Below, in pieces: positions 11,081-30,408 of a stretch of 39,954 nucleotides of DNA. Position 1 is the stretch's first letter. Each line of letters starts with the position of its first letter. The DNA lies in NCBI GenBank assembly GCA_040752915.1, contig JBFMHB010000021.1, positions 4,157 through 44,110 of the forward strand, in the 5' to 3' direction. This DNA is from Acidobacteriota bacterium. GTDB lineage: Bacteria; Acidobacteriota; UBA4820; DSQY01. A model generated the notes under the pieces. It was not told the DNA's origin, did not search any database, and was given only the letters and a program-made list of their open reading frames with translations. A program made the translations under genes and the position numbers.

Positions 11081-13480
11081 ATGAAAGCCGTTATGGTTCT
11101 CAGGGGGCGTCCCCTTGTTCTGGACAAGACTCTGAAGGTTTGGGGAATTGACCTGGGCACGACCAACTCGACGGTGACAGAGATCCGGTTCTCGTCGAAC
11201 TGGGACGTCGGGGCTGCCCCAGACATGACGGTCCTCGAATTGGACCAACCTACCCAGGAGGGGGTATTCACATCTCCACTCGTGCCCTCCGTACTTGCCG
11301 TATTGCCCTCAGGGGGGCATTGGGTCGGTGAGGGAGCAAAGCGGCTCCGCGCCAGGCCCCAGGAAGCCGGCTTGATTCCGGAGCGGACCTTGTTCTTCGA
11401 AACAAAGAACGAGATGGGGCTCAAGAAGAGTTACTACCGAGCCGCCGAGCCCTACGACCGTCCCAGCAAGATCGCGGGTCACATCCTTCAGGCGCTGTGC
11501 GAGCGGGCGAAGGAGGCATCGGGAGGGCCAGCCGATAGGGTCGTGGTGACCGTCCCTGCCTCCTTTCAACTCAGCCAACGCATGGACACCCTCTCGGCGG
11601 CTCGGATGGCTGGGCTCGACCTCGGCCCCTACGACCTCTTGGACGAGCCCACTGCGGCACTCCTGGCCTTCATCGAGACGGCCGGGGCGGGGGAGCTTTT
11701 CACTGCAGGTGGGCTGAACCGAGTTCTCGTGTTTGATTTCGGCGGCGGGACCTGCGACGTCAGCATCGTGGAGGTCACGCTGTCGGCCCGAGAGAAACGG
11801 CTCGAAGCCGCCATGAGGGCTGCATCTCGCTACCACCGTCTCGGCGGGGGCGACCTGGATGGGGCCATTGTCCACGACGTACTCCTTCCGGCTTTGATCG
11901 AAGAAAACGGGATTGACCCCCGAGAGCTCTCCTGGGCGGAGAAAAAGCGGGGCCTGGAGCCGCAGCTCCTCGGAACCGCCGAGGCCCTGAAGATTGGTTT
12001 GTGCAGGGAGATCGACCGCCTGAAGAAGTTCGGAAAGTACCCAAAAGGCGGCATCGGCATCGAGGCCCACCAGCCCCCAGTCACGTGTTGGCTCGGCGGC
12101 CGGGCGCTGAGCCTGTCCAAACCCATTTTGACCGCTCCAGAGTGGGAGCAGATCCTTCAGCCCTTCCTCGACACCGACAATCTTTACGCCCGGGAGACCG
12201 AATACCGTCTTACCCAGTCGGTCTTTTCACCTCTGCAAGACGCCTTGGACCGGGCCAATTTGAAGGCAGGAGAGATAGACGTCGTCCTCTTGGTGGGAGG
12301 GAGCACACTCATCCCGGAGGTGTCTGAGGCCATGGGGGCTTTCTTCTCCAAGGCGAAGGTCGTCGGCTTCGATGACCCCCTCGAGGTCCAATTGGCCGTA
12401 AGCAAAGGGGCGGCCCTCCACGCATTCTGTTTGGAGGTCCTGGGGCACCCTGTCATCCAGCCCGTCCTGGCCGACACGGTTGCCCTTCTCACCGGCAAGG
12501 GGGACCCACTCACGCTCATCCAGGCAGGCTCGTCTGTCCCTTACCCTCCGGATGGTGGGTTTGCGCGGATTGACCGGCTCTCAGTCCCCGCCTCCGGAGA
12601 GCACGAAATGCGCATGGAAGTGGTGGCCCTTCCTTCGAGGCAGGTTCTCCTCAATGAAGTTTGGCATATGGATGGAGCGGCCAAGCGGGGGGAGCACATT
12701 ACACTCGAGTACAGGTTCGGGGCCAATGGAGAGCTCGAATGCGGGGCCTATGTTACTGAAAGGCCTCAGCAGAACTTTCACCGGTCGGCGGAGAACCCGC
12801 TTGTCACCGTAGTCAATCCCCACCCCACTCGCCTCAGGATCGAATCGCTTGAGGAGGAGATACGCCAGCGTGGGGGGCCAAGTCCAAAGAATGCTGGAAA
12901 GCTGTTGCAACTGGCGAAGCTCTATGCAGACCTCGGCCAATACGAGAAGGCCATCGATTTCCTAAGGGTTACGCTTCGCCTCATCAACCGTCCCGATGCA
13001 GAGTTGCTGAACCTCATGGGGCTCTATTACGCTGACCTGAAGGACATCGAGCGCTCAGAAAAGGCGCTCCTGGCGGCCGACGAGGCTTCGTCAAACTGGG
13101 GCGGCCCGCTGTTCAACCTGGGCGTGCAAAAGTGGAAGCGCGGTGACTACACCGGGGCCGTGGAAGCCCTTCAGGGGAGCCTAAGGAAGGAACCCGCCTC
13201 TGCGCCGGCCCAGACCCTCTTGTCGCTTTGCCAGGATGCGTTGGGAAAAGAGGCGGAGGCTGCGGCCACACGGAGGGCGGCACGGGACAACTTCGGCCCT
13301 CCCCGCCAGATGGACGACTGGAAACTTGGATGGTTCGAGACCTGGGCACACGCCTCCAGCGACGCCGAAGGTCTGAAGGCGGTCGAGAATGAAAGAACTC
13401 GCCGCAATTCCAAGGGGACCCCGACTAGCGAGCAGGTCTTGCGCCCAGAAGTGAGGCCTTCCATCGAGAAGATGCGATGA
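11081..13480 (+). CDS. Hsp70-family chaperone with C-terminal TPR region
   Basis: This divergent DnaK-like ATPase is probably a component of a defence or stress module. The nucleotide-binding domain is complete: phosphate loop 1 [14 protein letters not shown] (from residue 22), the GEGAKRLR lysine region, LLDEPTAALLAF, phosphate loop 2 DFGGGTCDVSIVEV (from 219) and the adenosine loop VLLVGGSTLIPEV (about 402). Insertions lie between the subdomains. The substrate-binding sandwich is reduced or diverged (about 470-590), the helical lid is missing, and TPR-like repeats replace it (about 600-730: LAKLYADLGQYEKAIDFLRV, LMGLYYADLKDIERSEKALL, LFNLGVQKWKRGDYTGAVEA). ATG 11081 has a strong GGGGGGAG; an in-frame ATG at 11033 has none. 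The gene overlaps the next by ATGA. It is not a duplicate of dnaK at 1128, and its clients are unknown. Confidence 0.85.
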   Translation: MKAVMVLRGRPLVLDKTLKVWGIDLGTTNSTVTEIRFSSNWDVGAAPDMTVLELDQPTQEGVFTSPLVPSVLAVLPSGGHWVGEGAKRLRARPQEAGLIPERTLFFETKNEMGLKKSYYRAAEPYDRPSKIAGHILQALCERAKEASGGPADRVVVTVPASFQLSQRMDTLSAARMAGLDLGPYDLLDEPTAALLAFIETAGAGELFTAGGLNRVLVFDFGGGTCDVSIVEVTLSAREKRLEAAMRAASRYHRLGGGDLDGAIVHDVLLPALIEENGIDPRELSWAEKKRGLEPQLLGTAEALKIGLCREIDRLKKFGKYPKGGIGIEAHQPPVTCWLGGRALSLSKPILTAPEWEQILQPFLDTDNLYARETEYRLTQSVFSPLQDALDRANLKAGEIDVVLLVGGSTLIPEVSEAMGAFFSKAKVVGFDDPLEVQLAVSKGAALHAFCLEVLGHPVIQPVLADTVALLTGKGDPLTLIQAGSSVPYPPDGGFARIDRLSVPASGEHEMRMEVVALPSRQVLLNEVWHMDGAAKRGEHITLEYRFGANGELECGAYVTERPQQNFHRSAENPLVTVVNPHPTRLRIESLEEEIRQRGGPSPKNAGKLLQLAKLYADLGQYEKAIDFLRVTLRLINRPDAELLNLMGLYYADLKDIERSEKALLAADEASSNWGGPLFNLGVQKWKRGDYTGAVEALQGSLRKEPASAPAQTLLSLCQDALGKEAEAAATRRAARDNFGPPRQMDDWKLGWFETWAHASSDAEGLKAVENERTRRNSKGTPTSEQVLRPEVRPSIEKMR

Positions 13481-14712
13481 GCACGTGGCTTCTCCCATAC
13501 GCGGACCTGACCCCTGACCAGCGACGGATCGTGGAGGCGCCTCCCGACCAGCACCGCCTGGTCATGGGGTTCCCGGGCTCGGGCAAGACCCAGGTGCTGG
13601 TCCACAGGGCCGACTACCTGCGAAAGCGGTTGGGAAGCCCCCCAGGACGCTTTCGGGTGATGATCTTCACAAATGTCCTGAGGGACTATATACGCTCGGG
13701 GCTGGACCTCCTCGGCCTTCCCCTCAATTCGGTCTGCACCTTCGACTCTTGGTGCAACGCCTATTACAAGTCCCACATCGGACCTCGTCGGCGCGGCTCC
13801 GGCGGTGACGAGGGGACAAGCTTTGAGATGACCCACGCGGCGGTCCTCCAGCGGCTTCGTGGAGATCGGAGCGAATGGGGCCACCTAGATTTCGCGCTCG
13901 TGGATGAGGGGCAGGACCTCCGCCCTGAGTGTTTTGAGATCCTCCGTCTGGCCGCGAAGCACATCACCGTTTTTGCGGACCCTCAGCAGCAGATCTACGA
14001 GGAGGGCGCCAGCCTAGAGCGAATTCGCGAAAACCTCGGATTGGCCCGTTCCCAAACAGCCCTCCTCGCGGCCTTTCGGAATTCCCCGGATGTGGCGGCC
14101 CTGGCCGCGTTCTTCATACAGGACGACGAACGGCGGTCCCAGTATGTGAGTCAGTCCCGCTTCCGGGTGTGCGAACGGGAGCGTCCTCTTTACTACTCCG
14201 CAGCTTCGGAAGATGCCGAATACGACCGTCTGGCCGAAGCGGTCAGGGGGAGGCAGGTCCTTAACCAGCGGGTGGGAATTCTTGTCGCGAGGAACCAATT
14301 GGTTTTCCGCGTGGCTTCCGCGCTCCGTCAACGGGGCCTCCATGTGGAGAGGGCCGTTCCTCAATTCAAAGGGGCGTACAAATCACAAATCGAAGCGCGG
14401 TTCGACAACAACGTCCCGAAGATCGCGACGTTCCATAGCGCAAAAGGACTCACTTTCGATGCAGTCTGCATGCCCAGGCTCAACGAGACGTCCTTCGTGC
14501 GTTTCAAGGGCGCCCAGCGCCGACGCATCCTATTTGTTGGCATTGCGAGGGCGATTCAATGGGTCTTTCTGAGCTCCGTAAAGGGGGAACCATTTGAAGA
14601 GCAAACGCTCTTCGAAGCCGCCGCCAGGACCGGCAAGCTCGTGATCCAACAGGCCGGGACTAAGGCGTCGCACACTGCTGCTCCTTGCCAGGATGACTAC
14701 TCCGTTCTGTAG
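13477..14712 (+). CDS. Compact UvrD/Rep-like superfamily 1 helicase
   Basis: The 411-residue protein has the SF1A helicase motifs: a Q-motif region (LTPDQRRIVEAP), Walker A GFPGSGKTQV, Walker B ALVDEGQDL, motif III VFADPQQQIYE, motif IV LLAAFRNSPDVAAL, motif V TFHSAKGLTFDAV and motif VI ILFVGIARAIQW. Motif V/VI spacing is normal, but motif VI reads GIARA where UvrD has ALTRA. With 411 residues it lacks most of the 1B/2B insertions of full UvrD (about 720), so it is close to a bare ATPase core, as in many conflict-system helicases. ATG 13477 overlaps the Hsp70-TPR stop (ATGA), showing coupling. Unwinding polarity and substrate are not known. Confidence 0.85.
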   Translation: MSTWLLPYADLTPDQRRIVEAPPDQHRLVMGFPGSGKTQVLVHRADYLRKRLGSPPGRFRVMIFTNVLRDYIRSGLDLLGLPLNSVCTFDSWCNAYYKSHIGPRRRGSGGDEGTSFEMTHAAVLQRLRGDRSEWGHLDFALVDEGQDLRPECFEILRLAAKHITVFADPQQQIYEEGASLERIRENLGLARSQTALLAAFRNSPDVAALAAFFIQDDERRSQYVSQSRFRVCERERPLYYSAASEDAEYDRLAEAVRGRQVLNQRVGILVARNQLVFRVASALRQRGLHVERAVPQFKGAYKSQIEARFDNNVPKIATFHSAKGLTFDAVCMPRLNETSFVRFKGAQRRRILFVGIARAIQWVFLSSVKGEPFEEQTLFEAAARTGKLVIQQAGTKASHTAAPCQDDYSVL

Positions 14713-14742
14713 ACGGCTCGTCGGAGGTCCAAGGGGGAGGGA

Positions 14743-17700
14743 ATGAAACCAGGGACTCTTGTTTGCCTCAAGGCGGACCCAGGCCGCGTGGGGACGATCA
14801 CCGGGAAGACCCGGGAGGCGGGTGGCCGGGTCTTCTGGCAGGTCAGGTTCGACGCGGTCACCGCGGAGTTCTACCCAGAGGGTCAGTTGCTCTCCAAAGA
14901 AGAGATCAGCGATGACCCCATCGAGCTCCTTCGGCAGGGCCGGTTGGGCCGACCGGCAGATCTACGCAAAAGTCTAACCTATCGTCGCCTCTCGGGAAGA
15001 TTGGCCAATCTCATTTACAGCATGGGAACCACGAATACGGATTTCTACCCATATCAATTCAAGCCCGTCCTCAGCTTTCTGGACTCCCCCAGCAACGGCC
15101 TCTTGGTGGCCGATGAGGTCGGGCTGGGTAAGACGATCGAGGCCGGGTTGATCCTGACCGAACTCCGAAGTCGTTATGACATCAAGCGCGTGATGGTCCT
15201 CTGTCCGGCGATGCTCATGGACAAGTGGCAGATGGAACTCTCCACCAAATTCGGAATCTACGCCGAGCCGCTCCAGGCCGGCGGCCTCCTGAAGCGATTC
15301 CGGGCCAGCCAGGGGGGGGGCGATAGCAGTTTCACGATCATTGGGAGCCTCCAAGGGCTCAGGCCCCGCAAGGGCTGGGATGAGGTCGAGACAACTGGGG
15401 CCAATAGCGCCACTCTCGCGCAATTTCTTCAGCGCGCCCAGTACGACGAAGCCCTTCTGGACCTGCTCATCATCGACGAGGCGCACTACCTGAGAAACCC
15501 GGAGAGCGCTTCGGCGCGCCTGGGGCGGATGCTGCGCGCGGTCTCGGAAAACGTGTTGCTTCTCTCCGCCACCCCCATTCACCTTAAGAACGTGGATCTC
15601 TACCAACTCCTCAATCTCGTGGATGAGGACACCTTCAGCCAGATGGGTACCTTCACCGAAATCCTTCGGGCCAACGAACCCCTCGTCAAGACCAGGGAGT
15701 TGGTCGCCAGCAAGCGCCTCTCGCAGCAAGAGTTTGCAGACCTCCTGCGGCAGGCCCGTCAGCACCCCTTCCTGTCCGACAACCGACAACTAGCGGTCAT
15801 GCTGGAGAATCTGCCGAGTCAGGAAGATCTGCGGGATCCCCACTGCGTGGCCGAACTCTGTGCCCGGCTCGAGAGGGTAAACCTGCTCGGAAGGGTCGTG
15901 ACGAGGACTCGTAAGCGGGAGGTGGAGTCCCTCAGGGTCCAACGGCAACCCATCTCAGAGGCCGTGCCTATGTCGGAGGCTGAAAGAACTTTCTACCATA
16001 ACGTCACGGAACTGGTCAGGCGCTACGCCATGCGCGGGGCGGCCCACGAAGCCTTCCTGTCCGTCATGCCCCAAAGGCAGATGTCCAGCTCCATGCCGGC
16101 CGCTCTGGCGGAGTGGAAGCGCAAGGGTTCCCGCATGGCCGAGCGGGCGGCCGAGCAAGAGATGTACGAGGACCTCGGATACGATGCCGCCGACGACGGA
16201 GGGCCCCTCGCCTCAGAACTCGCCCAAAGCGCCCACACCCTGGGCGATCTCGAAAAGCTCTACGCCAACGACAGCAAATACGAAAAGCTGAGGGACGTCC
16301 TGCTCGACCTCTTCAAGGACCAGCCCAAGGAAAAGGTCGTCCTGTTCTCCTATTTCCGCCCGACCCTGAAGTACCTCCTGGACCGCCTCACCCGGGACTG
16401 CATCTCCTGTGTCCTTCTCATGGGCGGTTCGGAGTTCGACAAGGGGTCCATTATCGAGAGGTTTAGCCACCCAGAAGGCCCCAGGGTCCTCCTCTCCTCG
16501 GAAGTCGCCAGCGAAGGTATCGATCTCCAGTTCGCCAGGTTCCTCATCAACTACGACCTACCGTGGAATCCTATGAAGATCGAACAGCGGATCGGCCGTA
16601 TCGACCGCCTCGGGCAAAAGGCCCCGAAGATCCTCATCTGGAATCTACTCTACAAAGACACCATCGACGCCAGGATTTACGTCAGGCTCCACGAGAGGCT
16701 TAGGATTTTCGAGCAGGCCCTCGGCGGCCTGGAGGGCATCATCGGGGAGAAGATCCAGGAGCTGACTTACGATCTCATGCGGGAAGACCTCACCCCGGAG
16801 GAGGAGGAACGGCGCATCGATCAGACGGCGCAGGCCATCGAAAACCTCCGCCTCGAAGAGGAGCGGCTCGAGAGCGAGGCGGGGAACCTCGTGGCTCACG
16901 GAGACTACATCCTGAACCATGTGAAAGCCGCCAGGGAGATGCAGCGCTGGATTACCGGCGAGGACCTCTGGGTCTACGTGCGAGACTTCTTCACCGCCAA
17001 CTACAAGGGGTGCGAATTCAGGCAGTTGACCGAGGACGACCTTCTGTTCGACATAAGGCTCAGCGAACAGGCCAAGGTGGACCTCGAAGCCTTCCTGGAT
17101 CGTGAGGACCTTCTAGGCAAGACCAGGCTTCACAGCCCGGAATCCGCGGCCGTCCGTTGTCGGTTCTTGAACCGGGTAGGCGGTTCGCAAGGCGACCGGG
17201 TTGAGAATATCAACCAGTTCCATCCCCTCACTAGGTTCGTCAGCCACAAGGTTGGGACCTCCCAAACGGGTTTCTACCCCGTGGCTTCCGCAACGGTTCC
17301 CGTCCGTGAGGTGGTCCCTGCAGCCAAGGGACTCTACGCGTTCTACGTGGATCTCTGGTCGGTCCAGGGTTTGAGGGAGATCGAACGGCTCTCTTACCAG
17401 GCCGTGCCCCTCGAGAAGCAGGCGGATCCTGTCACCGAAGATCTTGCCGAGCGTCTCGTCACCTCCGCGGCCAGGGTTGGGGCCGACTGGCTGTCTGCCG
17501 CGCAAACGGAGAATTGCCAAGCGGCCGCAGAGGCCGTAAAGGAGTGTTTCCTGAATTCCGAGGCACGGTTCAAAGAGTTCGTAGAGCAAATCGAGCGCGA
17601 AAACGAAGACCGAGCGGACGTACAGGCCCGGTCACTCGAACGTCACCGGGACTCTCAGGTGGAGAAGCTTCAGGCGGTGAGGCAATCCCACCTGGAGCGG

Positions 17701-17847
17701 GGCAAGAACGCCCTCGCAAAGGCCACGGAGGGCCGTATCGCAGCCCTTAACTCTCGCGTGAGCCAGAAACTCCTCAAGATCGACCAGGGCAGGCGCATCC
17801 GCTTCAGCAGGACGGAAGTTTGCGTGGGCCTGGTTCGGGTGGTGTGA
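14743..17847 (+). CDS. RapA-like SNF2-family ATPase/helicase
   Basis: This 1034-residue Swi2/Snf2 ATPase resembles RapA, which remodels stalled RNA polymerase, but it sits in a defence context. An N-terminal SH3-like/Tudor-like barrel (GTLVCLKADPGRVGTITGK, about 1-60) precedes the ATPase core. The core has DEVGLGKTIEAGL (from 124), VLCPAMLMDKWQMEL, IIDEAH (about 243-248), LLLSATPIH, then LLSSEVASEGIDLQFA, NYDLPWNPMKIEQRIGRIDR (motifs V-VI, about 600-622) and RLGQ. The C-terminal third is helical, with a long charged coiled coil (about 940-1010) that could hold partners. GGGGGAGGGA lies directly before ATG 14743. The gene is 30 bases from the UvrD-like gene and 1 base from the next, so it is in the same operon. 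Housekeeping RapA is usually about 970 residues and monocistronic, which argues against that role. Confidence 0.85.
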   Translation: MKPGTLVCLKADPGRVGTITGKTREAGGRVFWQVRFDAVTAEFYPEGQLLSKEEISDDPIELLRQGRLGRPADLRKSLTYRRLSGRLANLIYSMGTTNTDFYPYQFKPVLSFLDSPSNGLLVADEVGLGKTIEAGLILTELRSRYDIKRVMVLCPAMLMDKWQMELSTKFGIYAEPLQAGGLLKRFRASQGGGDSSFTIIGSLQGLRPRKGWDEVETTGANSATLAQFLQRAQYDEALLDLLIIDEAHYLRNPESASARLGRMLRAVSENVLLLSATPIHLKNVDLYQLLNLVDEDTFSQMGTFTEILRANEPLVKTRELVASKRLSQQEFADLLRQARQHPFLSDNRQLAVMLENLPSQEDLRDPHCVAELCARLERVNLLGRVVTRTRKREVESLRVQRQPISEAVPMSEAERTFYHNVTELVRRYAMRGAAHEAFLSVMPQRQMSSSMPAALAEWKRKGSRMAERAAEQEMYEDLGYDAADDGGPLASELAQSAHTLGDLEKLYANDSKYEKLRDVLLDLFKDQPKEKVVLFSYFRPTLKYLLDRLTRDCISCVLLMGGSEFDKGSIIERFSHPEGPRVLLSSEVASEGIDLQFARFLINYDLPWNPMKIEQRIGRIDRLGQKAPKILIWNLLYKDTIDARIYVRLHERLRIFEQALGGLEGIIGEKIQELTYDLMREDLTPEEEERRIDQTAQAIENLRLEEERLESEAGNLVAHGDYILNHVKAAREMQRWITGEDLWVYVRDFFTANYKGCEFRQLTEDDLLFDIRLSEQAKVDLEAFLDREDLLGKTRLHSPESAAVRCRFLNRVGGSQGDRVENINQFHPLTRFVSHKVGTSQTGFYPVASATVPVREVVPAAKGLYAFYVDLWSVQGLREIERLSYQAVPLEKQADPVTEDLAERLVTSAARVGADWLSAAQTENCQAAAEAVKECFLNSEARFKEFVEQIERENEDRADVQARSLERHRDSQVEKLQAVRQSHLERGKNALAKATEGRIAALNSRVSQKLLKIDQGRRIRFSRTEVCVGLVRVV

Positions 17848-17848
17848 G

Positions 17849-19363
17849 ATGGGTATGAGAGACAAGGTCAAGAATCTGATTCGCTTCCTGGACAGGATCA
17901 ATCCGGGTTGGCATCGCCGCGCTCAACCAGGAAAGGGAGGAAGCGAATCTCCTCCTCCTCAGGCGCAGACCGTCACCGGGGAAATACCGAGCGCCACACC
18001 GAGGGAGAGCCAGCTGAGGGAAGAGCGCGAACTCGTCATCGGCTTGGACTACGGAACCTCTCGCACCAAGGTGATCCTCCGGGACATGGCCTTGCGGCGG
18101 TCCATCGCGGTCCCCTTCGCCGAGTACGCCTCCGACGGAAATCCCTACCTACTTCCGTCCAAAATGCACGTTGACTCGAACGGCACGTTCTCCCTCTCCT
18201 CACGAGAATCAAGCGTCATCGTGAGGGACCCCAAGGTCAAGCTCATGGAGGGCCCCGACAAGGAAGTCCCCCTCTCAACGCTCGGGACAATCCCTGCCAG
18301 AGGCTTAACGATGGCATACCTCGCTTTGGTGCTCAGAGAGGTGTTGGCCTGGTTCGAAGCCGAGCAGGCCGCCATCTACAGGAACATCGATATCATCTGG
18401 GAGGTCAACGTCGGCATCCCGGCACGGAGCTACGACGAGTCGGCCCTGAAGTCGGCGTTTCAAGAGGCCTCTGGCGCGGCTTGGCTTCTCGCGGCCTCCG
18501 GGAACCCGATCGATTGGAGGACGGTAACCGCCGTTTCCAGCGCTCTGAGGGACGGGTCCTGCCCCGATTTGGCCTACACGGGCGGGGGTCTGGTAAGCGC
18601 AGCCAATAGGGACCCAGAGCGCGTCAAGGTCCGTCCCGAGATCGTTGCCGAAGTCCTGGGGTACGCCAGGTCAAGCCACCGCAAGGACGGGATGCACCTG
18701 ATGGTTGACGTGGGCGCCTCTACGCTTGACGTATCGTGTTTTAGGCTTCACCTCCACGAGGGGGAGGATCGCTACTCTATCTTCGCCTCCGAGGTGGAAA
18801 GACTCGGCGCAATGAAGCTCCTCGAGCGACAGTTGGGGAGTCAGAACGCGGATGAAAAGACCTGGAAGCGGATGAGGGAACTCGCGGAGGTCGGACCTCC
18901 GCCGGTCCTGACCGAACTCATCCAGTCACCGAACCTGGACACGCTCAATCAGGCCTCCAAAAAGTTTCGGACCAAGTGCACAGACTTGGTCGCCAAGGTC
19001 GTCTGCGGGACCAAGAGGGACAAGGATCCCCATGCGGAGGAATGGGCCTCGGGGCTCCCCGTCTTTCTGTGCGGTGGTGGTTCCCGGCAGGACTTCTTCC
19101 GAGAAGTGCTCAAAGAGGCGGCCAGCCGGGTGAGATCCAACGGGGTCAGGTCGATGGGGACGAAGCGCATTCCCAAGCCGGACGACCTCGTGGCACCGCG
19201 GTGCCTTCCGGAGGATTACGACCGCCTTGCAGTGGCCTATGGATTGAGCTTCTCGTCCAACAGCGTCGGGGTCGTAGATGTCCCCAACCAGATCGAAGAT
19301 TTTGCGCCGTGCCAGATCCGGAGCAATTTCGAAGACAGGTACATCAGCAAGGAAATGGTTTGA
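17849..19363 (+). CDS. Hsp70/actin-fold ATPase lacking a substrate-binding domain
   Basis: The 504-residue protein has the three nucleotide loops of the Hsp70/actin fold: phosphate 1 VIGLDYGTSRTKVIL (from residue 63), phosphate 2 MVDVGASTLDVSCF (Asp287 to Val), and adenosine CGGGSRQDFF (from 408). Phosphate 2 lacks the GGGT of true Hsp70s (GAST instead), and no beta-sandwich follows. It may be a regulatory or slow ATPase rather than a chaperone. A basic, Pro/Ser-rich tail of about 55 residues precedes the fold. The start codon sits one base after the upstream stop; an ATG six bases on (17855) is an alternative. Lying in one operon with an Hsp70-TPR and two helicases, it probably works with them. 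Confidence 0.8.
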   Translation: MGMRDKVKNLIRFLDRINPGWHRRAQPGKGGSESPPPQAQTVTGEIPSATPRESQLREERELVIGLDYGTSRTKVILRDMALRRSIAVPFAEYASDGNPYLLPSKMHVDSNGTFSLSSRESSVIVRDPKVKLMEGPDKEVPLSTLGTIPARGLTMAYLALVLREVLAWFEAEQAAIYRNIDIIWEVNVGIPARSYDESALKSAFQEASGAAWLLAASGNPIDWRTVTAVSSALRDGSCPDLAYTGGGLVSAANRDPERVKVRPEIVAEVLGYARSSHRKDGMHLMVDVGASTLDVSCFRLHLHEGEDRYSIFASEVERLGAMKLLERQLGSQNADEKTWKRMRELAEVGPPPVLTELIQSPNLDTLNQASKKFRTKCTDLVAKVVCGTKRDKDPHAEEWASGLPVFLCGGGSRQDFFREVLKEAASRVRSNGVRSMGTKRIPKPDDLVAPRCLPEDYDRLAVAYGLSFSSNSVGVVDVPNQIEDFAPCQIRSNFEDRYISKEMV

Positions 19364-19588: not shown

Positions 19589-22453
19589 ATGAATCCAGGC
19601 TCCATCGTTCGATGCAGAAACCGGGATTGGGTACTCCTTCCTTCTCCCGACGAAGGGGTCTACCTTTTGCGGCCCCTGACCGGCGCCACCGAGGACGTGG
19701 TGGCCGTCCACAAAGGCCTGATGGAACTCGCCAAATTCGACTTCGCGGAGGAGCAGGTTCGGTCGGCCGCCTTCCCGGTTCCGACCAGAGACGACCTCTC
19801 CGACGCGGCGGGCGCCCACCTCCTCTGGCAATCGGCCCGTCTGACACTCCGCGAAGGGGCCTCTCCCTTTCGCTCCCTCGGGCGCATTTCCATCCGGCCG
19901 AAAACCTACCAGTTCGTCCCGCTCCTCATGGCCCTGCGCCTCGACCCCGTGCGCCTGCTCATCGCCGACGACGTGGGGGTGGGGAAGACCATCGAGGCCC
20001 TTCTGATCGCCAGGGAGCTGTGGGACCGCGGCGAGATCCGGCGGTTCTGCGTGCTCTGTCCTCCCTCCCTCTGCGACCAGTGGCAGAAGGAACTCGCCGA
20101 AAAGGCCAACCTCGAGCCCGTCGTGGTCCGGTCGGGCACGGTCAGCCAGTTGGAGCGCCAGAAGCCTCGCAGCAAGACGATCTACGAGCATTTTCCCGTG
20201 ATCGTGGCCAGCATCGACTACCTCAAGAGCGACCGGAACCGCCACGCCTTCCTGCTTCACTGCCCCGACTTGGTGATCGTGGACGAGGCCCACGGCGCCT
20301 CGCCGGCGAACAGCGAGGCTCAGCAGCAGCGCTACGAGCTGGTCAGGAACCTCTCCCAGGCACCCGACCGCCACCTGATTCTGCTCACGGCCACGCCCCA
20401 CAGCGGGATCACGAGCGCCTTCACCACGCTCCTCTCCCTCCTCCGTCCCGACTTCGTCCGAATGGACGCGGCCAATCTTTCGGAACCCGAACGGATCGAA
20501 CTCGCCAAGCACTTCGTCCAGCGGACGCGGAAAGACATCGAGAGCGCCTGGCAGGGGTCCGGCTGCTTTCCAAGTCGCGACCCGAAGGACAAGATCTATC
20601 ACCTTTCGCCGCACTACCGGGAGTTCTTCCAGCGGACCTACGACTACTGCCACCAATTGGTCACCCAAAGCCAGGGTCTGGAGGAGCGTAGAAAGAAAGT
20701 CCACCAGTGGGCCGCCCTGGCCCTCTTGCGCTGCGCCATGTCCAGCCCCGCGGCCGCCCTGGCCGCTTTTGAAGAGAGGAAGAAAAGGCAGGCGGGGGAC
20801 GAATACGGACTCGACGAGCGTGGACAGGTCATGGAAGCATCGGATGAGAGCGCCAGCGACGAGACGCCGGTCTCCGCCCTCGCCTCCACCGAGGCGGCCT
20901 CATGGGATTCGGAGCTCCGGCGCCTTCGGGAGCTCCAGCGCATGGCCGCCCGGCTCCTCGAGGAGAGGGCCGACTCGAAGCTGGAGCGCTGCAGGGAGCT
21001 GGTTCTGGATCTGCTTCGGGAGGGCTTCCACCCCATCGTCTGGTGCCGCTTCGTGGCCACGGCCGAGTACCTCGGGGACGGATTGAAAGCCTTCCTGGCC
21101 GACAAGCTCCCTTCGGCAACCGTGACGGTGGTGACGGGGCGCCTGGGGGACGAGGAGCGCCGGGAGAAGATCGCTCAGATCGACCCGGAGCGCCCCCGTG
21201 TCCTCGTGGCCACCGACTGCCTCTCCGAGGGCATCAACCTCCAGGAAAAATTCAGCGCCGCCCTCCACTACGACCTCCCCTGGAACCCGAACCGGATGGA
21301 ACAGCGCGAAGGCCGCGTGGACCGCTTCGGCCAGACCGCCCCCGTGGTGAAGGCCATCCGTTTCTTCGGGGCCGACAACCCCGTGGACGGGGCGGTGCTG
21401 GAGGTCCTGTTGAACAAGGCGAGGGAGATTCACAAGACCCTCGGAACCCACGTGCCGGTACCGGAAGAGAGCGAAAGCGTCACGGAGGCCCTCCTCAACG
21501 CCCTCCTTTTGAGGACGCCTCGGGAGCGTTACAAGGCCCCCAGCCTCTTCCAAGACGACGACTCCCTCGAAGCGCACATCCAGCGCTTCCACCTGCGCTG
21601 GCAAGCCGACGCGGAGCGTGAGAAGGTCAACCGCACCCGCTTCGCCCAGCGGGCGATCAAGCCCGAGGAAGTCCAGAGGGAACTCGAAGCGGCCGACGCC
21701 GTGCTGGGAGATCCGGAGGCTGTCCGGGACTTCCTTCTCAACGCCGCCCAACGTCTCCAGATCTTCATCGAACCAGACCGCAACCATACGGGCGTGTACC
21801 GCATCGCCCTCTCCGAAGCCGCCAGGGCCACCCTTCCCGAAGCGCTCCGCGAAGCGCTGCCGGCATCGCGCTCGGGCAAGTGGACCGTTTCCTTCGAATC
21901 GCCGACGCCCGAGGGGGCCGAATACCTGGGCCGCAACCACCGCTTCGTGGCGACCCTCGCGCGCTACCTCCTGGAGGAAGCCCTCACGCGGAAAGGAGCC
22001 GCGCGGGCCGCCCGGTGCGGAGTGATCGCTACCCGCGCCGTCCCCGGGCCCACAACCCTTCTGCTCCTTCGCGTCCGATACCTGGTCGAACAACCCGATC
22101 GGCCGCCCCTTCTTTCCGAGGAGGTCCGCGTCCTCGGCTTCGGGGGAGACCCCACGAGTCCCGCCTGGCTTCCGGACGAGCAGGCCCTCCGCCTCCTCGC
22201 CGAAGCCCGCCCCGTCGCCAACGTGCCCCGGGAGGAAAAACAGAGGCGCCTGGCGCAGGTCCTGCCTCGTTGGCCGGAGCTGGAACGGGCACTGCGGCCG
22301 CTCCTCGACCAGCGCGCCGAGGAACTCGAAGGGGCCCACAAGCGCATTCGCCAGGCCCTCCGCCTGAGGGTCAGGGAGTGGAGGCTGAGGCCCCAGCTTC
22401 CCCCCGACCTCCTCGGCCTTCTCCTCCTTCTTCCGGCGGAGGGCCGGCCATGA
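19589..22453 (+). CDS. DrmD-like SNF2-family helicase
   Basis: The 954-residue SNF2-type ATPase resembles DrmD, the class 1 DISARM helicase paired with an adenine methylase. An N-terminal beta region (MNPGSIVRCRNRDWVLLPS) leads into the core: IADDVGVGKTIEALLIAREL (Walker A, from 125), VLCPPSLCDQWQKEL, IVDEAHG (DEAH 232-235), LLTATPHSG, then VLVATDCLSEGINLQ, HYDLPWNPNRMEQREGRVDR (motifs V-VI, about 556-576) and FGQ. An acidic linker (about 400-430) lies between the two RecA lobes. The C-terminal 250 residues are Arg/Glu/Leu-rich. Its stop overlaps the methylase start (ATGA), the pairing expected of drmD-drmMI. GC is high, close to the core genes and unlike the lower-GC first module, which suggests that the two modules have separate histories. 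Confidence 0.82.
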   Translation: MNPGSIVRCRNRDWVLLPSPDEGVYLLRPLTGATEDVVAVHKGLMELAKFDFAEEQVRSAAFPVPTRDDLSDAAGAHLLWQSARLTLREGASPFRSLGRISIRPKTYQFVPLLMALRLDPVRLLIADDVGVGKTIEALLIARELWDRGEIRRFCVLCPPSLCDQWQKELAEKANLEPVVVRSGTVSQLERQKPRSKTIYEHFPVIVASIDYLKSDRNRHAFLLHCPDLVIVDEAHGASPANSEAQQQRYELVRNLSQAPDRHLILLTATPHSGITSAFTTLLSLLRPDFVRMDAANLSEPERIELAKHFVQRTRKDIESAWQGSGCFPSRDPKDKIYHLSPHYREFFQRTYDYCHQLVTQSQGLEERRKKVHQWAALALLRCAMSSPAAALAAFEERKKRQAGDEYGLDERGQVMEASDESASDETPVSALASTEAASWDSELRRLRELQRMAARLLEERADSKLERCRELVLDLLREGFHPIVWCRFVATAEYLGDGLKAFLADKLPSATVTVVTGRLGDEERREKIAQIDPERPRVLVATDCLSEGINLQEKFSAALHYDLPWNPNRMEQREGRVDRFGQTAPVVKAIRFFGADNPVDGAVLEVLLNKAREIHKTLGTHVPVPEESESVTEALLNALLLRTPRERYKAPSLFQDDDSLEAHIQRFHLRWQADAEREKVNRTRFAQRAIKPEEVQRELEAADAVLGDPEAVRDFLLNAAQRLQIFIEPDRNHTGVYRIALSEAARATLPEALREALPASRSGKWTVSFESPTPEGAEYLGRNHRFVATLARYLLEEALTRKGAARAARCGVIATRAVPGPTTLLLLRVRYLVEQPDRPPLLSEEVRVLGFGGDPTSPAWLPDEQALRLLAEARPVANVPREEKQRRLAQVLPRWPELERALRPLLDQRAEELEGAHKRIRQALRLRVREWRLRPQLPPDLLGLLLLLPAEGRP

Positions 22454-25400
22454 ACGCCACCCCCGCCATCCGTCTCGAAGGCGGGCTCTTCGGCCTGGAC
22501 ATCCTGGAGGCGCTCGAAGCCGGCAGCCTCCAGGGCCAAAAACCCCAGGACTTCGGCCTGGAGCCCCGCCGGAGCCTCACCGACGAGATCGCCGCCGCCT
22601 TCGCCGACGCCCGCGACCAGTGGGCCCTCTTCCAGCGCCGGGTGGAGCGCCTGCCCGAGAGCGACCCCGCCACGACCCTCACGAGGGACGCCTGGGTCAT
22701 TCCTTTCCTGGGCCTTCTGGGGTACGAGCTGACCTACAACCCCCGGGCCTACGAGGTGGACGGCCTGAGTTTCGCCGTCTCGCACCGAGCCAGTTCGGCG
22801 GCGGAAGACGGTCCCCCGGTCCACGTCGTGGGGGCGAGGCAGGAGCTGGGACGGGTCGCCCCCTCGGGCCGCCCCCGCCTCTCCCCCCACGCCCTCGTCC
22901 AGGAGTACCTCAACCGCACCGAGCACCTCTGGGGCCTCGTGACCAACGGCCTCACCCTCCGGCTTCTGAGGGACTGCACCTTCGTCCGCCGCCAGGCCTA
23001 CGTGGAATTCGACCTGACGGCCATTTTGGAGGAACAGCGCTTTACCGACTTCGCCCTCCTCTACCGCCTCCTCCACCGCTCCCGCCTGCCGAGGAGCGCG
23101 GCCGATGCGGACGCAAGCCTCCTCGAAACCTACTACACCCACGCGGTGGAGCAGGGCGGACGCGTGCGCGACCGGCTCCGAGACGGCGTCGAGGCGTGCC
23201 TTCAGATCCTGGCCAACGGCTTCCTCTCCCACGAGGTCAACGTCGCGCTGAGGCGCCGGCTGGACCCCGCCTGCACCGGGCAGGAGCGCATTCTCCCCGA
23301 GGAGCTCTACCGCCAGCTCCTGCGCCTCGTGTACCGGTTCCTCTTTCTCCTCGTCGCCGAGGAGCGCGGCCTCATCGGCCCCAATCCCCTCTACCGCGAC
23401 CACTACGGCATCCTCCGCCTGCGCCGGCTCCTCGACCGGAGGGAGGCCTTCGACGACCACGACGACCTCTGGCACGCCCTCCGCCTCCTCTGGAAGGTCT
23501 TCCGAGACGAGCGCCTCGCCGCCCTCCTGGAGGTCGCCCCCCTCAACGGCGACCTCTTCGCCCCCCTCGACCTGGACGCCTGCGCGCTGAAGAACCGGGA
23601 CCTCCTGGAGGCCTTCCGCTGCCTCGCCGAGTACCGCGAGAGCCCTTCCGCCCCGCCCCGCCGCGTCAACTACGCCGCCCTGGACGTCGAAGAACTGGGG
23701 TCGGTCTACGAGAGCCTGCTGGAGTACAAACCCCAGGTTGCATCAGAGCACCCCTTCCCGCGGTTCTTTCTCACACAGGAAGGGTCCGAGCGCCGCTCCA
23801 CCGGCTCCTACTACACCGACCCATCCCTCGTCGAGCCCCTGGTGCGCCATGCCTTGGACCCCGTGCTTTCCTCACGCCTGGAACGGGCCACCAGCGCCCA
23901 GCAGAAAGAAGCCGCGCTTCTCTCCTTCAGGGTCTGCGACCCGGCCTGCGGTTCCGGCCACTTTCTCCTCGCGGCGGCACGCCGTCTCGGAAAAGAACTG
24001 GCAAGAGTGCGCACGGGCGAGGACGAGCCCTCGCCCGAGGCCATCCGCGAAGCCCTGCGGGACGTGGTCACCCACTGCCTCTACGGCGTGGACAAGAACC
24101 CCCTCGCCGTGGAGCTGTGCCGCGTGGCCCTCTGGATCGAGGGCCACACGCCGGGAAAGCCCCTCACCTTCCTTGACCATCGCATCCGGTGCGGCGACTC
24201 CCTTCTCGGCGTCTTCGATTTGACCGTACTCCAAGAGGGCATCCCCGACGAGGCCTTCAAGGCGCTGGCGGGGGACGACAAGGCCGCCGCGAAGGAGGCC
24301 AAGAGGCGCAATGCGGCCGAACGGCGCGCCGACCTCTTCGTCGGAAACCTCGGCGCACGCCTCTCCGCCCTGGCCGCCCCCCTCCGGGCCGCCGAAGCCC
24401 TGCCGGAGAATTCCATCGAAGAGGTGCGCGCCAAGGAACGCGCCTACCGTACGGTAGAAAGCACTGGAGAGTTCTTGCGCCTGAGACTTGCCTGCGACGT
24501 ATGGGCCGCGGCCTTCTTCCAGTCCTATCCGGGGGGCGAAGCCGGCCTGGTGACAACCGCGACGCTCCATGAAGCCATCGATGGGGGCTCGATTCGCGAG
24601 GCCCGGCTCGGAGGCTCCATTGCCTTGTGCGCCCACAGAAACGCCTTCTTTCACTGGCCGCTGGCCTTCCCGGAGGTCTTCGTGGCAGGGGGGTTCGACG
24701 CGGTCTTGGGCAATCCGCCTTTCCTCGGGGGGCTCAAGCTCTCCGGCACCTTTGGCGATGCCTACCGAAGGTGGCTCATGAGCGCCTTCGAACCCTTCAA
24801 AGGGACGGCGGACCTGTGCGCCGCCTTCTTCCGCCAGGGGTTTCGAATCGTTAGACCCGGCGGCCGGGTGGGTCTCATCGCGACCAACACGATCGGCCAG
24901 GGCGACACCCGAGAGAGCGGCCTGGCACCCCTCCTCCAGCAAGGAGCCGTCCTCGCCTACGCCAAGCGCTTCGTGAAATGGCCCGGCGCCGCCAACGTGG
25001 AAGTGAACCTCGTGGCCTTCCAGCGGCCCGCGGAGAAGGGCGGGGCGGCGCTCATCCTTCAGCCCGTCCTCGATGAAGGCCCGGTGGGGTTCATTTCCTC
25101 GCGGCTGGACGCAGAGGAGGAGGGAGAGCCCAAGAAACTGCGGCAAAATTCCGGGAAGGCTTTCCAGGGGTCTATCGTGCTTGGACTCGGTTTTGTGTTA
25201 GAACCTGCCGAAGCTGAAGACCTGATCGCCAGGGATCCACGGAACAAGGACTGCCTCTTTCCTTACCTGAACGGGGAGGACCTGAATGGCGATCCCGAAC
25301 AGCGGCCCAGCCGGTGGGTGATCAATTTCTTCGACTGGCCGTTAGAGACAGCGCAGCAGTACCCTGACCTTATTCGCATCGTGCAGGACCGCGTGAAACC

Positions 25401-26088
25401 AGAGCGAGAGCGACTTCGGGATTCCATCCCCATTCAGGCCAAGCGGAAGCAGTTCTGGTGGCAGTATGGTTCATCTGCCACCTCGCTCTACCGCGCCATC
25501 GCGCCCCTTCGGCGCGTGCTGGTTATTAGCCGAGTGACAGAACATCATGCAATGGTTTTTGTTCAGTCCAACGCAGTCTTTGCTGATAGATTGGTAGTGT
25601 TTGCCTTTGATGACTATAGTTCCTACGCAATTTTGCAGTCCGCAATCCACGAAATCTGGGCGCGTCGACAAGGTTTCACGCTGGAATCTCGCTATTGTTA
25701 CGCACCCAGCGATGCTTTTGAGACCTTCCCCTTTCCCCGCCCCGGCTCCGAAGAAGTGATGGCCCGCACGGCGGAGCTGGGCGCCGCCTACCACGACCAC
25801 CGCCGCCAGATCATGCTCTCGCGCCGCCTGGGCCTCACGAAGACGTACAACCTTTTCCATAATCCAGAATGCACCGATGAAGACATTGTCCGCCTGCGAG
25901 AGCTTCACGCCGAGATGGACCGCGCCGTCCTCGCCTGCTACGGTTGGGACGACCTCGACCCTCAGAACGGCTTCCACCAGAATGAGAGGGGCCAAACTCG
26001 GTTCACGATTTCAGCGGCAGCCAGGCGCGAGCTGCTCAGGAGACTGCTCGGCCTGAACCTGGAGCGGGCCCATGAGAGCACGGAGTAA
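22450..26088 (+). CDS. DrmMI/PglX-like N6-adenine DNA methyltransferase
   Basis: This large (1212 residues) gamma-class adenine methylase is similar to DISARM DrmMI, BREX PglX and type IIG enzymes. It probably marks host DNA so that the linked helicases spare it. The N-terminal half is alpha-helical with no intact PD-(D/E)XK that I can see. SSTGSYYTDPSLVEPLVRHAL-type lead-in (RSTGSYYTDPSLVEPLV) precedes motif I DPACGSGHFL (Asp497) and motif IV GNPPFLGG (Asn755). GVDKNPLAVELCRVALWIE lies between. The C-terminal specificity region (about 890-1150) ends in FETFPFP and a helical tail. ATG 22450 overlaps the helicase stop. Bases 25141-25680, in the specificity region, fall to about 42-53% GC against 65-73% on both sides, a sign that this domain was swapped. 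Confidence 0.88.
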   Translation: MNATPAIRLEGGLFGLDILEALEAGSLQGQKPQDFGLEPRRSLTDEIAAAFADARDQWALFQRRVERLPESDPATTLTRDAWVIPFLGLLGYELTYNPRAYEVDGLSFAVSHRASSAAEDGPPVHVVGARQELGRVAPSGRPRLSPHALVQEYLNRTEHLWGLVTNGLTLRLLRDCTFVRRQAYVEFDLTAILEEQRFTDFALLYRLLHRSRLPRSAADADASLLETYYTHAVEQGGRVRDRLRDGVEACLQILANGFLSHEVNVALRRRLDPACTGQERILPEELYRQLLRLVYRFLFLLVAEERGLIGPNPLYRDHYGILRLRRLLDRREAFDDHDDLWHALRLLWKVFRDERLAALLEVAPLNGDLFAPLDLDACALKNRDLLEAFRCLAEYRESPSAPPRRVNYAALDVEELGSVYESLLEYKPQVASEHPFPRFFLTQEGSERRSTGSYYTDPSLVEPLVRHALDPVLSSRLERATSAQQKEAALLSFRVCDPACGSGHFLLAAARRLGKELARVRTGEDEPSPEAIREALRDVVTHCLYGVDKNPLAVELCRVALWIEGHTPGKPLTFLDHRIRCGDSLLGVFDLTVLQEGIPDEAFKALAGDDKAAAKEAKRRNAAERRADLFVGNLGARLSALAAPLRAAEALPENSIEEVRAKERAYRTVESTGEFLRLRLACDVWAAAFFQSYPGGEAGLVTTATLHEAIDGGSIREARLGGSIALCAHRNAFFHWPLAFPEVFVAGGFDAVLGNPPFLGGLKLSGTFGDAYRRWLMSAFEPFKGTADLCAAFFRQGFRIVRPGGRVGLIATNTIGQGDTRESGLAPLLQQGAVLAYAKRFVKWPGAANVEVNLVAFQRPAEKGGAALILQPVLDEGPVGFISSRLDAEEEGEPKKLRQNSGKAFQGSIVLGLGFVLEPAEAEDLIARDPRNKDCLFPYLNGEDLNGDPEQRPSRWVINFFDWPLETAQQYPDLIRIVQDRVKPERERLRDSIPIQAKRKQFWWQYGSSATSLYRAIAPLRRVLVISRVTEHHAMVFVQSNAVFADRLVVFAFDDYSSYAILQSAIHEIWARRQGFTLESRYCYAPSDAFETFPFPRPGSEEVMARTAELGAAYHDHRRQIMLSRRLGLTKTYNLFHNPECTDEDIVRLRELHAEMDRAVLACYGWDDLDPQNGFHQNERGQTRFTISAAARRELLRRLLGLNLERAHESTE

Positions 26089-27034
26089 GGAGCTCCTTGA
26101 GAGGGCTATAGCCGCCATGATTGCGGCGATCGACGTGTACAACAAGCCCGACTTTCCCTATCGGGCCGAGTCCTTCACGATCCTGGCCTTGAACGGCTGG
26201 GAACTGCTTCTCAAGGCCAAGTGGCTTGCGGACCACCATAACCAGCTCCGCAGCCTCTATGTGCCCGAAGACAGGTCAAAGGACAAGAGAGCGAAGTTCA
26301 AGAGGGGCCGATCTGGCAATCCTCTGACCCATACGGTCGATTTCCTGGCCAGAAAGCTGACCGAGGCCAAGGTCCTCGATGAGAAGGCCCGTTGCAACCT
26401 GGAACTACTGTGCGAACTGAGGGACACGTCCATCCACTTCTACCATCGGAGCGAAGCCCTGGCCGAACGTGTGCAAGAGGTGGGGATGGCGACGTTGAAG
26501 AACTTCGTCACGGCCGCAAAGGATTGGTTCGACGCCGACCTCTCCCGGTTCAATTTCTATCTCATGCCCCTGGCGTTCGTCAGCCCGCCCGCCGAAGCGA
26601 CGGGCCTGCCTCTGAGCCGCGAGGAAAAGAGCTTTCTTCGATACTTGGAGGCTCACAAGGCGCACGAGGATGATCCGGCGGGTCCCTACTCCGTGGCCAT
26701 CCGCCTCGAGGTGCGATTCGTGCGCTCCAAAGCCACCGATGCGGCCGCCGTCAGGGTCACGACCGATCCGAAGGCTCCCGCCGTAAGATTGACCGAGGAG
26801 CAGTTCCGCGAGCGATATCCTTGGGATTACGGTGAACTAACGAAGAGGTGTCGCGAGCGCTACGCGGACTTCAAAGTGGACAAGAAGTACCATCAAATTC
26901 GAAAGGGCTTTGAACAGAACGAGCGGTTCGTCCACATTCGCAGACTGGATCCGGGCAACCCCAGGAGCGCCAAGAAGCCTTTCTTCGCACCGACTATTCT
27001 TCAGGAGATCGACAACCACTACCGAAAGAGGTAG
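26072..27034 (+). CDS. DUF3644-family protein
   Basis: The 320-residue protein matches the DUF3644 pattern at its N-terminus: LLERAIAAMIAAIDVYNKPD, FPYRAESFTILALNGWELLL, KAKWL. A conserved helical RDTSIHFYHR follows at about 114-123. The family is common in defence islands next to methylases and helicases; its biochemical role is not established. It overlaps the methylase by 17 bases, so it is translated with it. The C-terminal half (about 200-320) is mixed, with LTEEQFRERYPWDYGELTKR and a basic end. The His-containing RDxxxHF motif resembles HEPN-type RNase motifs (RxxxxH), so an RNase role in abortive infection is conceivable. That is inference. Confidence 0.8.
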   Translation: MRARSKELLERAIAAMIAAIDVYNKPDFPYRAESFTILALNGWELLLKAKWLADHHNQLRSLYVPEDRSKDKRAKFKRGRSGNPLTHTVDFLARKLTEAKVLDEKARCNLELLCELRDTSIHFYHRSEALAERVQEVGMATLKNFVTAAKDWFDADLSRFNFYLMPLAFVSPPAEATGLPLSREEKSFLRYLEAHKAHEDDPAGPYSVAIRLEVRFVRSKATDAAAVRVTTDPKAPAVRLTEEQFRERYPWDYGELTKRCRERYADFKVDKKYHQIRKGFEQNERFVHIRRLDPGNPRSAKKPFFAPTILQEIDNHYRKR

Positions 27035-27093
27035 CGGAACCTTGTAGCAGAATGGAGCAGTGTAGAATTGGTCTGAGAGTTGGGGAGGAGGAC

Positions 27094-27975: not shown

Positions 27976-27986
27976 GGACAAACGAC

Positions 27987-30254: not shown

Positions 30255-30269
30255 CGGGGAAGGCTTCGA

Positions 30270-30290
30270 TTCTCCTTCCAGGAAGGAGAA
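30270..30290. repeat. Perfect 10-bp inverted repeat
   Basis: TTCTCCTTCC (30270-30279), one base, then GGAAGGAGAA (30281-30290). It lies 15 bases after the small ATPase-partner gene and 118 bases before the large helicase. With a one-base centre it is a near-perfect palindrome, better suited to protein binding or cruciform formation than to an RNA hairpin. No T run follows. It may mark the junction between operons. Confidence 0.5.
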
Positions 30291-30380: not shown

Positions 30381-30408
30381 CTTCATCTGTGCAGTTTGAG
30401 GGGGACCG

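What the first reader, a model, noticed from the sequence alone, without database searches (positions are those of the whole stretch)
11081..19363. Candidate undescribed module: two Hsp70/actin-fold ATPases bracketing a UvrD-like and a RapA-like helicase
Four coupled genes (ATGA overlap, then 30- and 1-base gaps) encode an Hsp70 with a TPR tail, a bare-core UvrD-like helicase, a RapA-like SNF2 ATPase and a smaller Hsp70-like ATPase without a substrate domain. The layout is seen directly. I know of no named defence system with this quartet. One idea is that the Hsp70-TPR senses or remodels a phage or host complex while the helicases act on nucleic acid. That is inference.
Basis: partly seen in the sequence, partly recalled or inferred. 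Interest (0 to 1): 0.8.

Follow-up and report, generated by a model that had tools for sequence, protein, structure and literature searches.

The report
Two helicase–actin-fold ATPase gene pairs
Next to several phage-defence genes sit two independent two-gene units, each made of a helicase-type motor and an ATPase of the Hsp70/actin fold; one unit (a SNF2 motor with its own Hsp70-like partner) is almost inseparable across many bacterial phyla and resembles the motor–actin pairing of eukaryotic chromatin remodellers.

Summary
As a quartet they are not a conserved system: they are two independent two-gene units side by side. Unit A is Hsp70-TPR (11081-13480) plus a minimal UvrD helicase (13477-14712); six of seven other Hsp70-TPR loci have the UvrD directly downstream, without unit B. 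Unit B is a RapA-like SNF2 (14743-17847) plus an Hsp70/actin-fold ATPase (17849-19363). The ATPase adjoins this SNF2 subfamily in 80 of 81 evaluable loci from many phyla, and the two proteins' distances correlate at r=0.92. PADLOC labels this SNF2 'DrmD', but NCBIfam's DrmD cut-off is failed and no DrmA was found in the host genome, so it is not DISARM. Unit B occurs at DISARM loci in 13 of 86 cases, beside ARMADA-like genes (also here), and alone in at least 12. The small ATPase matches no Pfam or NCBIfam family; its predicted fold is nearest the DnaK ATPase domain, with invariant nucleotide-site residues. Most likely it is a nucleotide-dependent regulator docked on the SNF2 motor, analogous to actin/Arp subunits of SWI/SNF-type remodellers. 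Docking and defence function are inferred, not shown.

The parts
11081..13480 (+). Unit A, gene 1: Hsp70 (DnaK-type ATPase domain with intact motifs, substrate-type domain) with C-terminal TPR tail
   Evidence: Pfam HSP70 and TPR; seven homologues 36-45% identical over the full length
13477..14712 (+). Unit A, gene 2: minimal UvrD-like SF1 helicase (411 aa)
   Evidence: Pfam UvrD N/C; 37-51% identical homologue directly downstream of Hsp70-TPR in 6 of 7 other loci, 2 of them truncated
14743..17847 (+). Unit B, gene 1: RapA-like SNF2 ATPase with N-terminal beta-barrel and C-terminal helical hairpin
   Evidence: PADLOC PDLC02623 940 bits; NCBIfam DISARM_DrmD 407 below cut-off 610; AF2 pLDDT 84; Foldseek RapA
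17515..17793 (+). Segment of the SNF2 gene coding the C-terminal helical hairpin (aa 925-1017), candidate docking arm for the small ATPase
   Evidence: AF2 secondary structure, helices 925-985 and 989-1017; docking is inference
17849..19363 (+). Unit B, gene 2: Hsp70/actin-fold (ASKHA) ATPase without substrate domain, with conserved C-terminal tail (...YISKEMV)
   Evidence: AF2/Foldseek; invariant D67, G69, K74, K129, E264, D287, G289 in 62 sequences; adjoins the SNF2 in 80 of 81 evaluable loci
19589..22453 (+). Neighbour: second RapA/BrxHII-like SNF2 (PADLOC DpdE/DrmD-like), probably part of an ARMADA-like set
   Evidence: PDLC02853 613 bits; NCBIfam DrmD 343 below cut-off 610
22454..26088 (+). 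Neighbour: MmeI/PglX-type adenine methyltransferase (PADLOC DrmMI); open frame reaches back to 21880, true start not determined
   Evidence: PDLC02643 834 bits, Pfam Eco57I/MmeI
30409..35484 (+). Neighbour: YprA/DruE-like helicase with MZB domain
   Evidence: PADLOC DruE3 305 bits, Pfam DEAD, Helicase_C, MZB

Best explanation
The stretch holds two separate two-gene units, each a nucleic-acid motor plus an ATPase of the Hsp70/actin (ASKHA) fold, placed next to each other in a defence island. Shown: unit B (RapA-like SNF2 + small Hsp70/actin-fold ATPase) is a near-obligate, co-evolving, usually translationally coupled pair found in many phyla, often inside or beside DISARM, ARMADA-like and other restriction loci and sometimes alone; unit A (Hsp70-TPR + minimal UvrD) is a rarer pair of the same logic. 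Inferred: the ASKHA protein binds its motor as a dedicated regulatory subunit. In unit B it would dock on the SNF2 C-terminal helical hairpin and, by its ATP/ADP state, gate or couple DNA translocation, as actin and Arp subunits do on helical segments of eukaryotic Snf2 remodellers; its variable N-terminus and exchangeable C-terminal tail would connect the motor to different partners (DrmA/DrmB, SF1 helicase-nucleases, methyltransferase sets). In infection the motor would strip or remodel proteins on incoming DNA so that the partner restriction machinery can act. In unit A the Hsp70-TPR would similarly control or recruit the UvrD motor, the TPR tail supplying the protein contact.
For: Pairing of unit B: all 5 annotated plasmid loci examined for the small ATPase, of 6 plasmid hits, lie next to the SNF2, and the sixth record is among the SNF2 hits; reciprocally, all 5 plasmid SNF2 hits at E<1e-80 are records of that same set. 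Scan of 84,980 species genomes: 155 relatives, 80 loci kept. Of 86 loci from all sources 75 pair directly by the first count (71 downstream, 4 upstream; a 4-base overlap is commonest), 5 more after correcting ORF calling, 5 end at contig edges, leaving one without it (L024, a 5.5-kb contig) = 80 of 81. Mantel r 0.92, 0 of 5000 permutations. DISARM embedding: L073 = DrmD (1535 bits)-DrmMI-GHKL-SNF2-ATPase-DrmA (1597 bits)-DrmB; DISARM markers in 13 loci. ARMADA-like: window, and L072 (YprA 857 bits); definition from PMC12458937. Stand-alone: at least 12 loci. Nucleotide-site residues invariant. SNF2 hairpin modelled well. Unit A pairing.
Against: No physical interaction was tested and no complex could be modelled. 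Defence is inferred from neighbours only. The remodeller analogy rests on fold class and one helical hairpin; the ATPase's nearest fold is DnaK, not actin, although a weak profile match is to ParM. Unit A rests on seven homologues besides the window, two with a truncated UvrD and one without. The Hsp70-TPR has a substrate-type domain and could simply be a chaperone. The 80 loci share one short conserved pattern, so distant members of the SNF2 subfamily that lack the partner could have been missed.
Confidence: 0.55

Rival explanations
1. Chaperone threshold: the Hsp70-fold proteins sense or remodel phage or host proteins and release the helicase (or another effector) above a threshold, as proposed for other chaperone-based conflict systems.
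For: Hsp70-TPR keeps a canonical DnaK ATPase domain and a substrate-type domain; Hsp70 parts occur in CoCoNuTs and GAP1-N2 conflict systems (PMC11090510, PMC7159879); the chaperone threshold concept is from PMC7159879; some small ATPases end in CxxCxGxG, a DnaJ-like zinc motif.
Against: The small ATPase has no substrate domain, and its one-to-one pairing and co-evolution with a single SNF2 subfamily fit a dedicated subunit better than a general chaperone.
Confidence: 0.2
2. Not defence: unit B is a RapA-like transcription or repair factor (RNA polymerase recycling, removal of stalled complexes) with a regulatory subunit, carried along in islands.
For: Nearest solved structure is RapA; at least 12 stand-alone cassettes.
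Against: Patchy presence (4 of 396 genomes of the phylum), plasmid carriage, insertion inside DISARM operons and recurring restriction genes next door.
Confidence: 0.12
3. One reading: one four-gene defence system.
For: Co-directional, tightly spaced four genes here.
Against: No other locus has all four; one other genome has both units, on different contigs.
Confidence: 0.06
4. It is simply a DISARM (or ARMADA) component and the SNF2 is DrmD.
For: PADLOC model PDLC02623, named DrmD, matches the SNF2 full length; the pair lies inside DISARM loci.
Against: NCBIfam DrmD cut-off not met; the true DrmD is a different gene in the same L073 operon; no DrmA match in the host genome; most pair loci show no DrmA/DrmB.
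Confidence: 0.07

Closest known systems
DISARM class 1 (DrmD-DrmMI-DrmA-DrmB-DrmC)
   Same: SNF2-type helicase and adenine methyltransferase nearby; unit B is embedded in true DISARM operons elsewhere
   Different: Here no DrmA match in the genome; the unit B SNF2 fails the NCBIfam DrmD cut-off; DISARM as described has no Hsp70/actin-fold ATPase
ARMADA (Bell et al. 2025 preprint, PMC12458937)
   Same: Downstream window genes: BrxHII/RapA-like helicase, PglX-like methyltransferase, YprA/DruE-like helicase
   Different: About 4.3 kb of other genes between methyltransferase and YprA; the paper does not mention Hsp70, DnaK or chaperones
RapA (RNA polymerase-associated SNF2 ATPase)
   Same: Closest solved structure by sequence and fold
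   Different: Fails the NCBIfam RapA cut-off (149 against 576); long C-terminal helical hairpin; obligate ASKHA partner
Eukaryotic SWI/SNF, INO80, SWR1 remodellers with actin/Arp subunits
   Same: Snf2-family motor with actin-fold ATPase partner (working analogy, from general knowledge)
   Different: No homology of the docking segment shown; the bacterial partner is closest to the DnaK domain by fold; no histones
CoCoNuT CnuD and GAP1-N2 Hsp70 components (PMC11090510, PMC7159879)
   Same: Hsp70-like domains inside bacterial conflict systems
   Different: Paired with McrBC-type or GTPase systems, not with SNF2 or UvrD; CnuD Walker A-like motifs are reported degenerate, here the sites look intact
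Gabija GajB and other UvrD-like defence helicases
   Same: UvrD-like SF1 helicase in a defence island (PADLOC GajB models match weakly)
   Different: No GajA; the fixed neighbour is Hsp70-TPR
PADLOC candidate PDC-M61 (protein B)
   Same: 32 of 62 small ATPases match its B profile weakly (best 2.3e-9)
   Different: In the window protein only a 38-residue stretch around the phosphate-2 motif of a 588-position profile matches

Membership tests
DISARM | DrmA (YprA-type helicase) present | tested here: not met
   PDLC02567 finds nothing in the host genome, controls ring in 2; one DrmA model only; no DrmA-type best hit in the window
DISARM | DrmB present | tested here: not met
   No DrmB match among the window proteins scanned; genome-wide not tested
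DISARM | SNF2 is a DrmD | tested here: not met
   NCBIfam DISARM_DrmD 407 bits, cut-off 610; PADLOC PDLC02623 'DrmD' matches 940 bits, but in L073 another gene is DrmD (1535 bits to PDLC02621)
DISARM | DrmMI methyltransferase | tested here: met
   PDLC02643 834 bits, gene ending 26088
ARMADA | YprA-like helicase of the ARMADA/Druantia branch | tested here: inconclusive
   DruE3 305 bits with MZB domain; no tree against ARMADA references was made
[quoted passage not shown]
   19589-26088; the YprA gene lies about 4.3 kb further on
RapA equivalog | NCBIfam PRK04914 cut-off | tested here: not met
   148.6 bits against 576
Hsp70 chaperone (small ATPase) | Hsp70-type nucleotide-binding fold with catalytic residues | tested here: met
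   Foldseek DnaK NBD E 1.8e-11; invariant residues; residue equivalence to DnaK is by motif, not by superposition
Hsp70 chaperone (small ATPase) | substrate-binding domain | tested here: not met
   504-aa model ends after the ATPase domain plus a short tail
SWI/SNF-type remodeller (works-like only) | actin-fold subunit bound to a helical segment of the Snf2 ATPase | not testable with these tools
   No complex prediction available; hairpin 925-1017 seen in the model
Gabija | GajA partner of the UvrD-like GajB | tested here: not met
   Both neighbours are other proteins: Hsp70-TPR (no PADLOC match) and the SNF2; best GajB score only 55 bits

The most novel reading that the evidence does not exclude
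Bacteria possess a SNF2 remodeller-like machine with a dedicated actin/Hsp70-fold regulatory subunit: an obligate SNF2-ASKHA complex used as an exchangeable DNA-remodelling module by DISARM, ARMADA and other restriction systems, the functional counterpart of the Snf2-actin/Arp pairing of eukaryotic chromatin remodellers; Hsp70-TPR-UvrD is a second invention of the same principle.
Probability: 0.3. Interest if true: 0.9.

Novelty: categorically new. Interest (0 to 1): 0.74.

Why it matters
A motor-ASKHA pair this strict (80 of 81 loci, many phyla) is not named in PADLOC, Pfam or NCBIfam, nor in the papers I could search, and its SNF2 is at present filed under 'DrmD', so it can be misannotated as incomplete DISARM. 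If the small ATPase regulates the SNF2 motor, the question why Snf2 remodellers carry actin-fold subunits becomes testable in a two-protein bacterial system, and DISARM gains an unrecognised accessory unit.

Tried and rejected
Quartet as one system: rejected. DISARM membership: rejected. PDC-M61 membership: only a short weak match. Viral contigs and phage records: no relatives. Hsp70-TPR in Planctomycetota and Myxococcota samples: none, without positive control. Promoter/terminator scan: nothing above shuffles. Profile comparison of the small ATPase with the window's DnaK: only the phosphate-1 motif aligned. Literature: DISARM+Hsp70, SNF2+Hsp70-like, actin-like ATPase and PDC names gave no description of either pair.
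Full report
OBSERVATION. The four genes exist as described: Hsp70-TPR 11081-13480, UvrD 13477-14712 (ATGA overlap), SNF2 14743-17847 (30-base gap), small ATPase 17849-19363 (1-base gap). Pfam identifies the first three; the fourth has no Pfam or NCBIfam family. The host is a 3.07-Mb genome in 153 contigs, 98% complete. Its phylum is most likely Acidobacteriota: the same-phylum genomes G349 and G070 match the named Acidobacteria and Blastocatellia records behind L054 and L091 in contig length and gene layout.

TWO UNITS, NOT ONE: UNIT B. The small ATPase was searched in plasmids: six records. The five that were opened all have a SNF2 of 35-39% identity to the window's next door, and none has the Hsp70-TPR or the UvrD adjoining; the sixth (Sphingobium fuliginis) is among the SNF2 hits. 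Reciprocally, the SNF2 at E<1e-80 hits five records, all of that set. In 396 genomes of the phylum the small-ATPase profile finds four genomes, the host included, and the SNF2 adjoins in each. A scan of 84,980 species genomes with a SNF2 N-terminal block gave 155 relatives and 80 kept loci, from Proteobacteria, Acidobacteria, Planctomycetes, Cyanobacteria, Myxococcales, Neomarinimicrobiota, KSB1, Gemmatimonadetes and others.

With the plasmid and genome loci this makes 86 non-duplicate loci. The small ATPase is directly adjacent in 75 by simple ORF calling (71 downstream, 4 upstream; a 4-base overlap is the commonest spacing) and in 5 more when ORF calling is corrected (L039, L040, L044, L063, L085). 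Five loci end at the contig edge (L034, L047, L055, L087, L090). L024, a 5.5-kb contig, is the one evaluable locus without it: 80 of 81. Pairwise distances of the two proteins correlate with r 0.92 over 43 loci (0 of 5000 permutations, best 0.24).

UNIT A. The Hsp70-TPR tail was searched in 297 genomes of the phylum: six homologous loci in five other genomes. UvrD homologues (39-51% identity) lie directly downstream in five of the six, two of them truncated; none has the SNF2 pair next door. A seventh, in a Bacteriovoracaceae genome, is an intact Hsp70-TPR/UvrD cassette with a 4-base overlap. Of 50 genomes with the SNF2 pair only that one also holds Hsp70-TPR, on another contig. So the window is the only locus seen where the two units touch.

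ANATOMY OF UNIT B. AlphaFold2 with 62 sequences gives the small ATPase at pLDDT 89, pTM 0.85; the best PDB folds are DnaK ATPase domains (E 1.8e-11; for the best hits TM 0.45-0.48 by query and up to 0.64 by target). A sequence profile weakly prefers ParM (E 0.0014). It belongs to the Hsp70/actin (ASKHA) fold. Across 62 sequences G65, D67, G69, K74, K129, G189, P263, E264, D287, G289 and G320 never vary. By motif these include phosphate-1, an actin-type lysine seven residues after the first aspartate, a possible Hsp70 K70 counterpart, a 'PE' motif and phosphate-2; that assignment is inference. There is no substrate domain. The N-terminal extension varies from nearly nothing to about 290 residues. 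Most C-termini read F/Y-[IV]-[SG]-K-[DE]-x-V; in the strongest DISARM loci they read DHTELYGD or DRDELYP; a few end in CxxCxGxG-like motifs. The tail may be a context-dependent contact; phylogeny alone could also explain it.

The SNF2 has an N-terminal beta-barrel, two RecA lobes and a C-terminal helical hairpin (helices 925-985 and 989-1017, pLDDT about 82-92). RapA is its nearest solved relative by sequence and fold. Motor motifs are invariant across 46 sequences.

SURROUNDINGS. In L073 and its relatives unit B sits inside a DISARM class 1 operon: DrmD, DrmMI, a GHKL ATPase, SNF2, small ATPase, DrmA, DrmB. DISARM markers occur in 13 loci (8 strong, 5 with a more distant DrmA). In L072 the pair is followed by a YprA/DruE-like helicase related to the window's (857 bits) and a BrxHII-like SNF2. 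In the window it is followed by a BrxHII-like SNF2, a PglX/MmeI-like methyltransferase and, 4.3 kb further, the YprA-like helicase: the ARMADA gene set of Bell et al. (PMC12458937). Elsewhere the upstream neighbour is often an SF1 helicase of changing family: a 690-aa UvrD (L025, L037, L048), NERD-SF1 (L028, L042, L043), RNase H/RecB-type with AAA_11/12 (L015 and relatives), AAA_11/12 with a DUF559 nuclease (L031); 10 of 37 sampled upstream genes, the window's UvrD included, carry AAA_19. At least 12 pairs stand alone, counting loci with no co-directional gene within 400 bases on either side. So an SF1 helicase upstream of unit B is a repeated theme, which may be why unit A and unit B ended up together here (inference).

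KNOWN OR NEW. PADLOC names the SNF2 'DrmD' (PDLC02623, 940 bits). The NCBIfam DrmD cut-off is not met (407 against 610), the genuine DrmD is a separate gene in L073, and no DrmA is found in the host genome with the one model tried. The PADLOC label therefore probably arose because this SNF2 is embedded in DISARM loci (inference). Neither pair was found described in the searched literature; subscription papers and most preprints are not in that library, so an undetected description is possible. Hsp70-like parts are known in CoCoNuTs (PMC11090510) and GAP1-N2 systems (PMC7159879), with different partners.

MECHANISM. Shown: pairing, co-evolution, intact ATP-site residues, motor identity, defence-gene company. 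Inferred: physical complex, docking on the SNF2 hairpin, regulation of translocation by the ASKHA nucleotide state, tail as adaptor, and the defence role. The closest working analogy, from general knowledge, is the actin/Arp subunits bound to Snf2 motors in SWI/SNF, INO80 and SWR1. No homology to those docking segments was tested.

Noticed in passing
window 1128-4066: Canonical housekeeping dnaK (1128-2957, HSP70 E 6e-222) and dnaJ (about 2969-4066) lie 7 kb upstream of the Hsp70-TPR, so three Hsp70-fold genes share one 20-kb stretch.
   Followed up: partly
window 19589-26088 and 30409-35484: BrxHII/RapA-like SNF2, PglX/MmeI-like methyltransferase and YprA/DruE-like helicase: probable ARMADA-like system interrupted by other defence candidates.
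   Followed up: partly
window 26072-39011: Run of further defence candidates: DUF3644 (PDC-S19), ParA-like ATPase, PDC-M56A/B, NucS-like nuclease (PDC-S11), HEC-07, NOV_C protein.
   Followed up: no
L073:7893-9770, L071:4503-6383: A GHKL (Hsp90/MORC-like) ATPase gene sits between DrmMI and the SNF2 pair in full DISARM loci.
   Followed up: no
L015, L019, L023, L031, L040 (C-termini of the small ATPase): Some small ATPases end in a single CxxCxGxG or CGGSG-type motif like a piece of DnaJ's zinc domain instead of the K[DE]xV tail.
   Followed up: no
L050:349-1680: A further actin-fold protein (443 aa...CIDFGTSSIRAV...) lies upstream of the SNF2, so there too two ASKHA proteins bracket the motor.
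   Followed up: no
window 14689-14709 and L102:3670-3694: The UvrD of unit A ends in DDYSVL or DDFSVL in two distant homologues, a possible C-terminal contact peptide.
   Followed up: no
L105:8506-8838, L106:974-1723: Truncated UvrD genes behind intact Hsp70-TPR genes: decay of unit A in some genomes.
   Followed up: no
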